DNA of 64,000 bases. It comes from Alphaproteobacteria bacterium (GTDB taxonomy: Bacteria > Pseudomonadota > Alphaproteobacteria > UBA9655). Within the stretch, counting starts at the first letter, position 1. Each line of letters begins with the position of its first letter. The stretch lies in contig JAIEPE010000002.1 in NCBI GenBank assembly GCA_019749915.1, positions 1-64,000 on the forward strand. Direction: 5' to 3'. The notes under the pieces are model-generated. The model made no database searches and had not been told where the DNA came from. It worked only from the letters and a program-made list of their open reading frames with translations. Both the position numbers and the translations under genes were made by a program. This document shows, piece by piece, positions 1,290 through 42,390 of this stretch.

Positions 1290-1390
1290 TTTCAAGTTAC
1301 CGGGCAGGCGCTCAAAGGTGAGCCCGATGAGCGTATTTTAATACGTGACAGAGGGCGAATCCTGCTGGGCAACGCACCCGGAACTTGAAA
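1290..1390. repeat. 101-bp structured repeat, copy 1
   Basis: The element begins TTTCAAGTT and ends AACTTGAAA, so its termini are perfect 9-bp inverted repeats, extended by CCGGG/CCCGG pairing. Inside is a second hairpin around CGTATT/AATACG. A second copy of exactly the same length lies at 3313-3413. Both occupy junctions between converging genes and end 12-20 bases from the stop codon of a minus-strand gene. It could act as a bidirectional terminator or be a mobile palindromic element. Confidence 0.85.
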
Positions 1391-3344: not shown

Positions 3345-3413
3345 GCCTGATGAGCGTATTCTGATGTGTGACAGAGGGCGAATCCCGCAGGGGAACGCAC
3401 CCAGAACTTGAAA
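3313..3413. repeat. 101-bp structured repeat, copy 2
   Basis: Same length as the copy at 1290-1390 and with the same terminal TTTCAAGTT/AACTTGAAA. It differs at about a dozen positions, several of which keep pairing (for example the central CGTAT/ATGTG stem). The left end overlaps the 3' end of the ligand-domain gene and supplies its stop codon. The right end stops 12 bases from the stop codon of the converging regulator gene. Confidence 0.85.
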
Positions 3414-16463: not shown

Positions 16464-16562
16464 AGCACAAAGGCTCATCACCGGGCGGATTTTTATACAC
16501 CAAGGAAAACCACGTTTTTTCGTCATTGCGAGAAAGGTCGAAGACCCGGCGAAGCAATCCAT
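16464..16562 (+). repeat. Half-element of the CGTCATTGCGAG family with terminator-like extension
   Basis: It begins with a GAG-N8-CTC hairpin and a short T run, continues through AAGGAAAACCACGTTTTTT, and ends with one CGTCATTGCGAG arm (16521-16562). The reverse complement of 39064-39163 matches almost the whole length. In both places it starts just past a stop codon (16436 and 39165), so it may also terminate transcription. Confidence 0.7.
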
Positions 16563-37340: not shown

Positions 37341-38900
37341 ATGGTCCAGAAACTTATTTTTTTAGTAATTTGCCTATTTTATTTTCCACATTTTTGTAAT
37401 GCATTCGCAGGTGACAAGGAGAGCCCCATAGTAGCTGTAAAGCACCATATTCCTTCGCGATACGCTACTCGGCATGGTGATCTTGCATCTGAGCTTGCGG
37501 AAGACCCGCTAATTATAAGCGATAATCCAAAAATTTATCTTCACGCCATCCTATTGGCTTTAGGAGAGAAATGTTTAGAAGCCTCTAAAATGATTCTCTC
37601 TTGTGCTCCCAAAGCTGCTCTGAAATTTTTGCCTGATTGCTACTCTCCCATTGCGGCTGATGAAAATCACTTAGTGCTTTATGACCATCTTACAAACACA
37701 ACTTCACCTTTTCCTCGGATTGAAATAAAAAAAGACTTACTCCTGCTTGCTTTATCTTATGCTGAGGCCTCGGATAGGTGTTTACCTCGTGAAATCAAAC
37801 TTAGGATTTCTCGCTCTGAGCGTCTAAAAGATGCTATTTTTATTGCTTGTGCTGATTCATTCGAAGTGGCAGCGCATCATGAAATAAGGCCTTTCAAATT
37901 CTCAACTGAGTCAAGAGAAGCCCTTGCCCCTTATTGCCTTTATTACAAAAATCTCTATGAGGGATTAGTAAACAAAGAGCAATCCTACACAGAATTTTTA
38001 GCTGGTCTTAAATATCTGATGGAAAACGCTGTCATTCTAAGACCAACACCTGACCGTCATATTGATTTCGAGAAGCTTCCTCTGAGAAGTTTGCTCGAAG
38101 ATTATATTAGGTTAAAAGACTCTTGGACGCAGCGATACAAAGCTGTTACTGAACCTGAAAAATGGCTTTCTCCCCCCTCCCTCGCAAAGCTTAAACAGCA
38201 AGTTGACAAAAGTTTTGAAAAGATCGTTCAATTTGATCTTAAAATGCTCAGCCAACAAGTCAGCATTTTACAAGCTATCAATACTCAACTTAAGGAGTGT
38301 GTAAGCACCTATCAAGGAAAACTCCTTGCCTTAAGGTTATCAAGTAGTAATTCACATTTTAAACCAACAGCTATTCTCTCTATCGAATCAACACCCAACG
38401 TTATTGAAAATGTGAGAGTATTTATTGAAGGAAATTACTCCTGTTTTGCAGAAGCTTATCGTGAAAGAATAACGAGACTTTATTCGCTTGTTGGAACGCT
38501 CAAAGCTACCGAAAGTCCTCTGGCTATTCCCAATTTTCAAAATATTATAGTCGAAGGACCACATTTTGATCCCAGTTCATTTGTTGAAGTTGGGAAACAG
38601 CTTGAACAAATCAGAAATGACTTTAGACTCTTGGCTCATGATCTTAAGGAGCGTGAGCTAACTTCACTTTCAGGTACAACACCTCTTCCACGGGCATCAA
38701 AATCCAAGAGCACTACTTTTTTTTGGCGACAGAGGTATACTCCTTCACAAACTCATCTTGGATCCACCAGCACCCCATCAATAAGCCACTCTATTAGTAC
38801 AATCACCAGCACAAGCTCAAGCGAAGACGAAGCCACTCTCTCCCCTCAAGCGAGTCCTACCCCCACAACAAGTAGTAGTAATTCCCAAGGAACGTCCTGA
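37341..38900 (+). CDS. Large exported protein of unknown function with Ser/Thr-rich tail
   Basis: 519 residues with a Sec signal (VICLFYFPHFCNAFA). The mature body (about 30-440) is mostly helical with scattered Cys, and coiled-coil-like stretches lie around 280-320. The tail from about 445 is rich in Ser/Thr/Pro and disordered. Inside the tail, SQTHLGS...SIS matches SQIQLGS...SIS at the C terminus of the kinase-like protein at 41157 (44 aligned bases, 9 differences). I recognise no family. It may be an exported host-interaction protein. Confidence 0.6.
   Translation: MVQKLIFLVICLFYFPHFCNAFAGDKESPIVAVKHHIPSRYATRHGDLASELAEDPLIISDNPKIYLHAILLALGEKCLEASKMILSCAPKAALKFLPDCYSPIAADENHLVLYDHLTNTTSPFPRIEIKKDLLLLALSYAEASDRCLPREIKLRISRSERLKDAIFIACADSFEVAAHHEIRPFKFSTESREALAPYCLYYKNLYEGLVNKEQSYTEFLAGLKYLMENAVILRPTPDRHIDFEKLPLRSLLEDYIRLKDSWTQRYKAVTEPEKWLSPPSLAKLKQQVDKSFEKIVQFDLKMLSQQVSILQAINTQLKECVSTYQGKLLALRLSSSNSHFKPTAILSIESTPNVIENVRVFIEGNYSCFAEAYRERITRLYSLVGTLKATESPLAIPNFQNIIVEGPHFDPSSFVEVGKQLEQIRNDFRLLAHDLKERELTSLSGTTPLPRASKSKSTTFFWRQRYTPSQTHLGSTSTPSISHSISTITSTSSSEDEATLSPQASPTPTTSSSNSQGTS
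38742..38785 (+). repeat. Shared C-terminal tail segment, copy 1
   Basis: These 44 coding bases match 42168-42211 in the same reading frame with 35 identical positions. They encode PSQTHLGS followed by a Thr/Ser stretch ending SIS. The match stops outside this segment. Confidence 0.7.
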
Positions 38901-39010
38901 GCTATACAGTGTAGTAGGCAACTCTTCCTAAGCTAAAAAGTGAAAAAATTCATCGGAATTCAGAAGAAATTAGGAAGAACACCTCCTTAGCACCTGACAA
39001 ATTTTTTCGT

Positions 39011-39163
39011 CGTCATTACGAGCCCACGCAGTGGGCGCTGCAATCCATGGATTCATTGGAAATATGGATTGCTTCGTCGGGTCTTCGACCCTTCTCGCAA
39101 TGACGAAAAAACGTGATTTTCCTTAGTGTGTAAAAATTCGTCAGGTGGTGAGGAACACCTCAT
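39011..39163 (-). repeat. CGTCATTGCGAG-family repeat with terminator-like extension
   Basis: The bipartite element occupies 39011-39105, with hairpins CCCAC/GTGGG and GGGTC/GACCC. On the minus strand 39064-39163 reads as AGGTG/CACCT hairpin, T run, AAGGAAAATCACGTTTTTT and one repeat arm, the same series as 16464-16562. CACCTGAC at 38990 and GTCAGGTG at 39139 extend the outer palindrome. It starts at the stop codon of the minus-strand gene at 39165 and lies between converging genes. Confidence 0.75.
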
Positions 39164-39164
39164 A

Positions 39165-40685
39165 CTATTTCCCAAAAATAAAAACCTTACCTGTTTGGCC
39201 TTCTTCAGCTTTTGTAGAAAGCACTTTTATTTGTTCTGGGTTTATGCCCATTTCAACCAGAAGATTTTTGACATCTTGCCCTTTTTCCGCGTCACCAACA
39301 CTTATTATTTCAATGACATCCGTTGGCTGTCTGAGCCCTCTTTTTGCTGCCGAGAAAAGAGTCCACTTTTGACGTCTCGCATCTTGGTTAGGCTCTAAAA
39401 CCCCTAAGGGGGATCGGTTATTAATAACGTCTGCATCACTGGAAGACACAGTTTCATTTTTTTCGTGATCCCGTAAAGGAAGGGGGGTTTTTTCTTCTTC
39501 CCCTAAAGGAGGCGTCCCTTCTTCAGGTAAAGGTTGAACTTTTGGACGAGACGGAACGGTTACTTTAGGAAGAGGCTTATCCTCATGAGTACTTGGAGCA
39601 ACCGATGGGGAAGGGGCTTTCTTTGAGGAAGGTTCTAACAGAGGTGTTGGCTGAGTCTGAGGTTGGGGTTGAGGCAAAGGAGGTAATGACTCGGGTTTTG
39701 ATTCGAGTTCTTTTTTCAGGGGAGGTTGGGCGACCGCCTTTTCAGAAGGTGGGGCAGAAGGCTGCAAAGGCTCAGAATTTAATACCGACTCCTCTGAATG
39801 AAGTCTATTTTTCGGTTGTGGTTTCCCATGTGCTGATTTTAAGCGAGAAGGATGCTTTTGCGAATGTTTGTGGTGAGGGTGTCCTTCTTCATGAGGAGGG
39901 AACACAGGAAGGGATTCTGGCTTAGGGAAAACAGATTCTATGACCAAGCCCTGCGAAGGTAAAGTAAGATGCCCTTTATCAATAGCAGAAGAAAGGGTTG
40001 CGAACCGAACGCGCTCTGCCGTCAGCCACTCATTTTGTCGTTGAGTGTTCGTATTGATAATACTTAATATTTGAGAAATAGTTCCTTCAAGTTGCTTCAA
40101 CACTCCTGACATTAATAGAAGGTTGGCATGGTCTTCATCTACAGCTCCTGGAAGCTGAAGAGTGGTTTGGATATTAGAACTTACAGCTTTAACTTGTTGA
40201 GAAGCTTCTGAAAAACCCGTAATCAAGCCATTCATGGTTCCAATTGTATGAGCGATTTGATCAAGCTGTTGTAAAGCCCGATTACGAATCTCCACCAACT
40301 TTGGGTTGGCAGGGGTAGTTCCCGGCTGAAGTTTAGCTTCAATCTCACCTGTGGCTGTATAATACCTGTTTATTTCAGCAATAGCCTTTTCGTAAAGTTC
40401 ACGCGTTGATTGAGTCAAAGAAGCCGATTTTATTTCAACACCCTGAAGCGCTTTCTTAAGTTCAGCAACCTTTGCTCCTACAGAAGTCCCTGTGGGATTA
40501 ACAGGTTCTACATCCGCAGCAATTGAAGGGAGTGCATAACGAGCGATGGCTAACCCAGGAACTTGCGGATCGTCACCTTTGGCGCGCTCTCCCCCCAAAC
40601 AAATAAAAGCCACCGTCATTGTGGAAGATAAAAAGGCAAAGTTAGGAAAAGCAAAAAAAGAGATTTTATAAGCTTTCTGTTTCAT
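39165..40685 (-). CDS. Exported Pro-rich protein of unknown function
   Basis: 506 residues. An N-terminal hydrophobic segment (FAFLSSTMTVAFICLGG) acts as signal or anchor. Residues about 60-240 form a helical, coiled-coil-like region (VAELKKALQGVE, LQQLDQIAHTIGTMNGLI). Residues about 260-420 are Pro/Lys/Glu-rich and disordered. The last ~75 residues form a compact domain (DVIEIISVGDAEKGQDVKNLLVEMGINPEQI) whose strand-helix pattern recalls the OmpA C-terminal half. A wall-spanning envelope protein is plausible. No firm family. Confidence 0.55.
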   Translation of the reverse strand: MKQKAYKISFFAFPNFAFLSSTMTVAFICLGGERAKGDDPQVPGLAIARYALPSIAADVEPVNPTGTSVGAKVAELKKALQGVEIKSASLTQSTRELYEKAIAEINRYYTATGEIEAKLQPGTTPANPKLVEIRNRALQQLDQIAHTIGTMNGLITGFSEASQQVKAVSSNIQTTLQLPGAVDEDHANLLLMSGVLKQLEGTISQILSIINTNTQRQNEWLTAERVRFATLSSAIDKGHLTLPSQGLVIESVFPKPESLPVFPPHEEGHPHHKHSQKHPSRLKSAHGKPQPKNRLHSEESVLNSEPLQPSAPPSEKAVAQPPLKKELESKPESLPPLPQPQPQTQPTPLLEPSSKKAPSPSVAPSTHEDKPLPKVTVPSRPKVQPLPEEGTPPLGEEEKTPLPLRDHEKNETVSSSDADVINNRSPLGVLEPNQDARRQKWTLFSAAKRGLRQPTDVIEIISVGDAEKGQDVKNLLVEMGINPEQIKVLSTKAEEGQTGKVFIFGK

Positions 40686-41156: not shown

Positions 41157-42230
41157 ATGGGCACTCGATATCTATTTTTAATTATTGTTTATCTTACTTT
41201 TTTCTCGGCTTGCAAGAGCGTTGCAGACCCGTATACAATTTATGAAAAGGAAGATTTTTCCCCAGCCTCAGATGATCCTTGGAAGGCTCATCCTATCAAA
41301 ACATTATCGCCTGAATTCAAGAAACAACTCTATGAAACCAATAGAACCCATTACTTAAATGAAGACGAATTTCATGAAGCAATAAATATGAATACTGAAA
41401 TGAGTGCAGAAAAACACAAAATCAAAAAAATAGGCAATTTTAATTTCAGAACAACATTAAGAATTGGCAGTGGAGACGAAGGAAATGTTTATTTAGCTCA
41501 ACACATCCCGTCAGGGGTATACGCAGCTATAAAAATGACAACAGTTTATGGCGAAGCTGAAAATGATCTTGAATATCTTGCTCTCAAAAATCTTGAGCGG
41601 CTATATGGGTGTTATGTTGAAAATACAACAATGTCTTTGTGTATGCCCCTGATCACGGGGAGAAACGTATTGCCATATACATCTTATCCATCTCAAGAGC
41701 GTGTGAAGACTTTATTGGGCGTTACACTTACTGAGGAAAAAGAGATCATATACAATAATTGGAACCTTAATGTTCATCTTATGCAAACCTTTCTTGATGA
41801 GTTTGAGTATTGTTCTCGTAAAGGAACCTGCTCAGATGGGGCCCCTCAAAACATCTTGGTTACTGAAGATTCGCAAATTGTCTTCGTTGACCAAACAGCA
41901 TGTACCCCAACTCCTCCTGAGGCAAGGATTATCCACGAAAGCCTCACTTTTTTTCATTATTTTCTTGGCCTTGCTCCTTTTCGTAAAAAAGAGAGAAAAA
42001 GATTTGAATTGAGAGAAGATATCAAATTTCCTCCTCCTGTCAGAGAGTTCAACAAGATTGTCGTAAATGCTATGAACGCATCAGAACCTATCTACACCTT
42101 AGCTCAAGTTAAGGAGACCTTTTCTAAATTTAAGATTGATATGGAATCCTACTTTCTAGGGCTCCCTCATTCGCAAATTCAACTTGGATCCGGCGACACC
42201 CAATCAATAAGTAGCAGCAGTAGTTCTTAA
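41157..42230 (+). CDS. Lipoprotein with eukaryotic-like protein kinase fold
   Basis: 357 residues. The signal ends in a lipobox (TFFSAC, Cys19). From about residue 98 the protein kinase landmarks appear in order: Gly-rich loop IGSGDEGNVYLA (103-114), Lys126 in YAAIKM, an acidic alpha-C stretch (134-140), a catalytic loop DGAPQNILV with D227 and N232 (family DxKPxN), and VDQT with D245 in the DFG position. The His of HRD is replaced (CSD). The Ser-rich C terminus shares a segment with the protein at 37341. It could be an exported kinase or a degenerate pseudokinase; membrane side and target are unknown. Confidence 0.65.
   Translation: MGTRYLFLIIVYLTFFSACKSVADPYTIYEKEDFSPASDDPWKAHPIKTLSPEFKKQLYETNRTHYLNEDEFHEAINMNTEMSAEKHKIKKIGNFNFRTTLRIGSGDEGNVYLAQHIPSGVYAAIKMTTVYGEAENDLEYLALKNLERLYGCYVENTTMSLCMPLITGRNVLPYTSYPSQERVKTLLGVTLTEEKEIIYNNWNLNVHLMQTFLDEFEYCSRKGTCSDGAPQNILVTEDSQIVFVDQTACTPTPPEARIIHESLTFFHYFLGLAPFRKKERKRFELREDIKFPPPVREFNKIVVNAMNASEPIYTLAQVKETFSKFKIDMESYFLGLPHSQIQLGSGDTQSISSSSSS
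42168..42211 (+). repeat. Shared C-terminal tail segment, copy 2
   Basis: Counterpart of 38742-38785. It encodes HSQIQLGSGDTQSIS, followed by six Ser codons and the stop. Both copies use the same frame, and the differences include third-base changes. Confidence 0.7.
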
Positions 42231-42390
42231 GAGAACAGTTTTTTTAGCTTTTAAAAAAGGAAAGAGTTCATCGAGACTGCATGTGAGTGTATCCTACTTT
42301 TTTGTTAGTTTTCTTTTAAAGAAAATATAATAAAGGAATAGCCATTAAGCGGATTATTCTCTAACATTCTCTAAATTTATGGAGAAAAAA

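What the first reader, a model, noticed from the sequence alone, without database searches (positions are those of the whole stretch)
38742..38785. Two unrelated exported proteins share a C-terminal segment
44 bases at 38742-38785 and 42168-42211 match at 35 positions in the same frame and encode SQ-x-x-LGS-x-x-T-x-SIS. The rest of the two proteins does not look related. Both segments introduce a Ser-rich tail. A shared tail on otherwise different exported proteins, one kinase-like, could be a sorting or secretion signal. A small coding repeat is the alternative.
Basis: partly seen in the sequence, partly recalled or inferred. Interest (0 to 1): 0.7.

Follow-up and report, generated by a model that had tools for sequence, protein, structure and literature searches.

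The report
Shared, copied gene ends; no signal
Two neighbouring genes for unrelated, probably exported proteins in an uncultured alphaproteobacterium share a 46-base stretch and part of the DNA after their stop codons, most likely because one gene end was once copied onto the other; there is no sign that it is a general sorting signal.

Summary
In detail: 38742-38785 and 42168-42211 match at 35 of 44 bases, in frame (46-base repeat 38740/42166, spacing 3426). No 4th-order Markov window (12) or codon shuffle (400 per test) reproduces it. The proteins are a 519-aa protein of unknown family ("P1") and a 357-aa protein-kinase-like protein, both with probable signal peptides and otherwise unrelated. 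Orthologues keep the motif: P1 in two other species (LGSSSTPSIS), the kinase in one (LGSDSTPSIS, 9 of 10 residues like P1). Codons agree beyond codon usage (9 of 11, P=2e-4), and about 50 bases after both stop codons are also alike. So the DNA itself is homologous: a gene 3' end was copied between genes now 3.4 kb apart, probably from P1 to the kinase, followed by loss of about 37 codons. The segment occurs nowhere else in 15 genomes of the genus, so it is not a general sorting signal. The P1 tail evolves more slowly in amino acids than the P1 body; the kinase copy drifts. Separately, Ser-rich C-termini in this genome lie almost only on predicted exported proteins (6 of 123 against 0 of 536), without the motif. 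The copying is ordinary; what the conserved P1 tail does is open.

The parts
38740..38785 (+). copy 1 of the 46-nt shared segment, in frame in P1 (SQTHLGSTSTPSIS)
   Evidence: beyond chance
42166..42211 (+). copy 2 of the 46-nt shared segment, in frame in the kinase-like gene (SQIQLGSGDTQSIS)
37341..38900 (+). P1: 519-aa protein, signal-peptide-like N-terminus (MVQKLIFLVICLFYFPHFCNAFA|G), no known family; orthologues in two other species of the genus
38682..38897 (+). P1 Ser/Thr-rich tail (72 aa), more constrained in amino acids than the P1 body in two of three comparisons
38913..38961 (+). 3' flank of P1, similar to the 3' flank of the kinase gene
41157..42230 (+). kinase-like protein, 357 aa, signal-peptide-like N-terminus; weak Pkinase match; orthologue 87% in one other species; paralogues about 30%
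42212..42230 (+). poly-Ser end and stop of the kinase gene, where about 37 codons of the P1 tail have no counterpart
42229..42277 (+). 3' flank of the kinase gene; in 740 kb of this genome the best non-self match of a profile made only from P1-type 3' flanks
   Evidence: E=0.0043
39165..40685 (-). exported, Pro-rich/coiled-coil protein between the two genes; it also neighbours the kinase in the other species and lacks the segment

Best explanation
The shared segment is a DNA-level copy of a gene's 3' end. A stretch holding the end of the P1 reading frame and the bases after its stop codon was duplicated onto the 3' end of a kinase-like gene now 3.4 kb downstream, replacing that gene's own tail; about 37 codons of the P1 tail were then lost from the copy, leaving SQ-x-x-LGS-x-S-T-P-S-I-S plus a short run of Ser. 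Shown: DNA homology of the 46-nt block and, more weakly, of the 3' flanks in the same order; presence in orthologues of both genes; absence elsewhere in the genus. Inferred: direction P1 to kinase (P1 has the segment in three species, the kinase in two closely related ones, and the kinase's paralogues have other tails and other 3' flanks), and illegitimate recombination or local duplication as the route. As to function: the segment is part of a probably disordered Ser/Thr-rich C-terminal extension of exported proteins. In P1 that extension is under amino-acid constraint, most likely as a binding or modification site or a flexible spacer (inference); in the kinase it drifts. It is not a general export address.
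For: DNA match beyond window and codon-shuffle nulls. The kinase orthologue reads LGSDSTPSIS, 37/44 nt against window P1, blastn E=2e-8 against the window. Synonymous agreement: 9 of 11 identical residues use the same codon against 3.1 expected, P=2e-4. A profile of P1 tail plus flank hits the kinase orthologue at two places in the same order, model 3-52 (E=1.4e-5) and 174-233 (E=1e-3); a profile of P1-type 3' flanks alone ranks the kinase flank first after P1 in 740 kb; alignment of the kinase 3' part to P1_G010 beats 300 of 300 shuffles for both kinase copies, and to P1_G000 for the G003 kinase. A third, decayed copy of the P1 3' end lies about 470 bp downstream of P1 in G006, so this gene end has been copied more than once. 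Constraint on the P1 tail: dN 0.10 against 0.21-0.25 in the body in two of three pairs, P=0.006 and 0.0007. Only five occurrences in the genus, all in these two families.
Against: The 3' flank of window kinase against window P1 alone is weak (3 of 300 shuffles reach it). A similar flank also lies downstream of an aminotransferase (NifS-like) gene in G007, so the flank may be a separate low-copy element. No genome was found that shows the state before the copying, so the direction is inferred. Constraint on the P1 tail is not significant for the closest pair (P=0.41).
Confidence: 0.72

Rival explanations
1. A short linear motif, LGS-x-S-T-P-S-I-S, serves as a sorting, second-step secretion or partner-binding signal of a few exported, effector-like proteins, and was kept for that reason after the DNA was copied.
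For: Kept in all five orthologues found; the P1 tail is constrained; both carriers look exported; Ser-rich C-termini are enriched in predicted exported proteins of this genome (6/123 against 0/536, Fisher P=4e-5) and not in a second genus of the family. Type IV effectors are known to be Ser- and Glu-rich in their last 100 residues (PMC3915618), and P1 has both.
Against: Two carriers per genome at most; other Ser-tailed exported proteins, including a CpaD pilus lipoprotein and a trypsin-like protein, lack it; the kinase paralogues do without it; the kinase copy reads GDTQSIS in this genome where its orthologue has DSTPSIS; both proteins have Sec-type N-termini, unusual for type IV effectors.
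Confidence: 0.12
2. The tail is simply a low-complexity Ser-rich spacer, and the match is convergence in composition plus chance.
For: Both ends are Ser-rich; other exported proteins of this genome have poly-Ser ends.
Against: Codon shuffles that keep the composition never reach the observed match; the matching residues L, G, P and I are not low-complexity; codons agree beyond usage.
Confidence: 0.05
3. A dispersed mobile or palindromic repeat inserted in frame into both genes, like Rickettsia palindromic elements.
For: This is an alphaproteobacterium with other intergenic repeats (39064-39091 with a second copy at 16535), and repeats of that kind are known to insert into coding sequence (own knowledge).
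Against: The segment is not a palindrome and has no copy other than these two in the genome; five in the genus, all in the same two families at the same place.
Confidence: 0.05
4. The copying went the other way, from the kinase gene to P1.
For: The DNA comparison is symmetric.
Against: P1 has the segment in three species with deeper divergence (dS up to 0.58), the kinase only in two close species (dS 0.15), and the kinase paralogues lack it.
Confidence: 0.15

Closest known systems
Terminal reassortment of secreted effectors (proposed for type III effectors, Stavrinides et al. 2006, cited in PMC7406222)
   Same: A terminus is copied from one gene for an exported protein to an unrelated one, giving a chimaeric gene.
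   Different: Here the C-terminus and the 3' flank are shared, not the N-terminal secretion signal; only one event plus two possible relics; no evidence that the copied end is a secretion signal.
Type IV secretion C-terminal signals (Ser/Glu-rich ends, PMC3915618)
   Same: The P1 tail is rich in Ser, Thr and Pro with an acidic SSEDE patch.
   Different: Both proteins have Sec-type signal peptides; no common peptide across exported proteins; a type IV system was not looked for.
Rickettsia palindromic elements and other in-frame repeats
   Same: Short DNA shared in frame by unrelated proteins of an alphaproteobacterium.
   Different: Not palindromic, not dispersed, always at the same C-terminal position in two families.
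C-terminal sorting domains (LPXTG, PEP-CTERM, type IX CTD)
   Same: A C-terminal segment shared by exported proteins.
   Different: Two carriers instead of dozens, no hydrophobic segment and basic end, no conserved domain.

Membership tests
General C-terminal sorting signal | Present on many exported proteins of the genome | tested here: not met
   Only P1 and the kinase in this genome; only these two families in 15 genomes
General C-terminal sorting signal | Carriers are exported | tested here: inconclusive
   Both N-termini look like Sec signal peptides by hydropathy and AXA-like sites; no signal-peptide predictor was available
Partial gene-end duplication | DNA-level homology including synonymous sites and non-coding flank | tested here: met
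Partial gene-end duplication | A relative without the copy keeps the older tail | tested here: inconclusive
   Kinase paralogues at about 30% identity have other tails and flanks, but no close orthologue lacking the copy was found
Dispersed or palindromic repeat | Several copies at unrelated sites, inverted symmetry | tested here: not met
   no palindrome beyond GGATCC is seen in the segment
Protein kinase (41157-42230) | Recognisable kinase fold and catalytic residues | tested here: inconclusive
   Pkinase E=0.0022, below the curated cut-off; PDB kinases at E=0.008; Lys126 and Asp245 invariant, catalytic-loop Asn not kept in paralogues; the structure model is poor (pLDDT 42)
Type IV secretion effector | Dependence on a type IV system and lack of a Sec signal | not tested
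   Sec-like N-termini argue against; the system was not searched for

The most novel reading that the evidence does not exclude
LGS-x-STPSIS is a short linear targeting or docking motif of exported, effector-like proteins in this genus of probably host-associated alphaproteobacteria, spread by copying gene 3' ends between effector genes; the exported kinase and P1 could be localised together by it, or P1 could be the kinase's substrate.
Probability: 0.1. Interest if true: 0.6.

Novelty: new member of a known kind. Interest (0 to 1): 0.27.

Why it matters
It documents, with orthologues, how a gene for one exported protein can acquire its C-terminus and 3' flank from a neighbour, and it warns that a shared tail on two proteins is not by itself a signal. 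The conserved P1 tail and the Ser-rich ends that lie almost only on exported proteins of this genome are the parts that could still carry a function.

Tried and rejected
General sorting signal: degenerate peptide pattern and DNA pattern over the genus, no further convincing carrier; tail profile over the genus, nothing beyond P1 at E<0.04. Dispersed repeat: none. Chance. P1 relatives in viral contigs: none. Wider distribution: P1 only in 3 of 59 genomes, the kinase family only in 5, all of one genus; kinase relatives in GTDB genomes only in MAGs titled 'Alphaproteobacteria bacterium'. Family libraries (Pfam, NCBIfam, PADLOC, PHROGs) give P1 nothing convincing. Structure models of both proteins were too poor to use, so no fold search was made. 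A model of the 3' flank has no consensus base pair, so it is treated as sequence only. Literature on poly-Ser tails gave nothing that fits.

Full report
OBSERVATION. The 44 bases at 38742-38785 and 42168-42211 match at 35 positions. The repeat finder gives 46 nt at 38740-38785 and 42166-42211, spacing 3426. Both are in frame, in a 519-aa ORF (37341-38900, here P1) and a 357-aa ORF (41157-42230, weakly protein-kinase-like: Pfam Pkinase E=0.0022; PDB kinases E about 0.008). In the whole-window self-comparison only three diagonals reach 34/44; no diagonal does in 12 fourth-order Markov windows. Shuffling codons inside both Ser-rich tails, 400 times per test, never exceeds 29/44. Neither protein finds the other in a genome search at E<=10.

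RELATIVES. The genome is 2.08 Mb in 73 contigs; of 59 genomes searched, relatives of both proteins were found only within its genus; related GTDB records are MAGs named only 'Alphaproteobacteria bacterium'. P1 has orthologues in G006 (68%) and G010 (79%, frame broken near the start), the kinase one in G003 (87%). All keep the segment: P1 LGSTSTPSIS (window), LGSSSTPSIS, LGSSSTPSIS; kinase LGSGDTQSIS (window) and LGSDSTPSIS (G003). The G003 kinase is thus more like P1 than the window's kinase is: 37/44 nt, blastn 85% over 47 nt, E=2e-8. Kinase paralogues at about 30% identity (G000, G003, G006, G010) end in other Ser-containing sequences and have other 3' flanks.

DISTRIBUTION. A degenerate pattern for LGSxxTxSIS finds these five places and otherwise scattered unrelated matches, about as many as the reversed control. 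The DNA pattern with 3 mismatches finds only the five. A profile of the P1 tail finds only P1 at convincing E-values. The segment is therefore neither a dispersed repeat nor a genome-wide tag.

DNA-LEVEL HOMOLOGY. Of 11 identical residues between window P1 and the G003 kinase, 9 use the same codon, 3.1 expected from codon usage of this contig (P=2e-4; other pairs P=0.001-0.05). The similarity resumes after the stop codons. A profile built from P1 tail plus flank hits the G003 kinase at model 3-52 (E=1.4e-5) and 174-233 (E=1e-3), in order, and the window kinase likewise (0.005 and 0.07). A profile built only from P1-type 3' flanks ranks the kinase flank first after P1 itself in 740 kb (E=0.0043, next 0.013). 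The part of the kinase genes after the core aligns with P1_G010 better than all 300 shuffles, and the G003 kinase does so with P1_G000 too; other pairs are borderline, 2-3 of 300. A similar flank also occurs once downstream of a NifS-like gene in G007, perhaps another relic, perhaps a separate element. In G006 a decayed second copy of the P1 3' end lies about 470 bp downstream of P1 (E=7e-19). So this gene end seems to have been duplicated more than once. The kinase copy lacks about 37 codons between SIS and the last Ser run.

SELECTION. Between G000 and G006 the P1 tail (72 aa) has dN 0.10 and dS 0.45, the body dN 0.21 and dS 0.47; non-synonymous differences are fewer in the tail (P=0.006; G006-G010 P=0.0007, where synonymous differences are also somewhat fewer, P=0.06; G000-G010 not significant). 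A Ser-rich tail that changes more slowly than its body suggests a role. The kinase tail instead changes faster than its body (80% against 87.5% aa identity; few sites).

SER-RICH ENDS IN GENERAL. In 740 kb of this genome, crude gene calls and a hydropathy rule give 123 exported-type and 536 other proteins; 7 or more Ser in the last 25 residues occur in 6 and 0 (P=4e-5; 8 and 3 at 6 or more). G006 shows the same trend without significance; 274 kb of another genus of the family and 100 kb of a further alphaproteobacterium show none among exported-type proteins. Carriers include a CpaD pilus lipoprotein and a trypsin/Sel1 protein, so the destination is probably not uniform. They do not share the LGS motif. 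P1 and the kinase are two of the six. This is a sample with a rough export predictor, and the threshold was chosen after a first look, so it is a lead only.

CONCLUSION. Most likely the end of one gene was copied to another in a region where genes turn over (G006 has a different exported gene in the kinase's place; G003 has a transporter-like gene in P1's place).

Noticed in passing
L114:4983-6275 (+), L114:13331-14689 (-), L115:4049-6586 (-), L165:6309-7025 (+): Other predicted exported proteins of this genome with poly-Ser C-termini: two of unknown family that share an HSR-x-DIC-x-x-C stretch (deaminase-like by eye only), a trypsin-like protein with Sel1 repeats, and a CpaD-like pilus lipoprotein.
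   Followed up: partly
L006:883-1079 (-): Decayed second copy of the P1 3' end about 470 bp downstream of P1 in G006.
   Followed up: yes
L083:1500-1563 (+): A P1/kinase-type 3' flank downstream of a NifS-like aminotransferase gene in G007, where neither P1 nor the kinase was found.
   Followed up: partly
window 39006-39107 and around 16535-16562: Intergenic repeat (ATGGATTGCTTCGTCGGGTCTTCGACCC) just downstream of P1 with a second copy on the other strand; looks like a dispersed element with partial inverted symmetry.
   Followed up: no
window 1345-1388 and 3368-3411: Direct repeat of 44 nt at 40/44, the strongest short repeat of the window.
   Followed up: no
L111:3419-4771 (+): TssK-type gene of a type VI secretion system (Pfam T6SS_VasE E=7e-45) in this genome.
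   Followed up: partly
L081:1079-1543 (+) against window 41157-42230: The slot between the Pro-rich minus-strand gene and dapD holds the kinase in G000 and G003 but a different 154-aa exported protein in G006: a variable site.
   Followed up: partly
L005/L007 (G010): P1 of G010 is split in two frames near its N-terminus (overlapping matches of residues 1-67 and 63-518).
   Followed up: no
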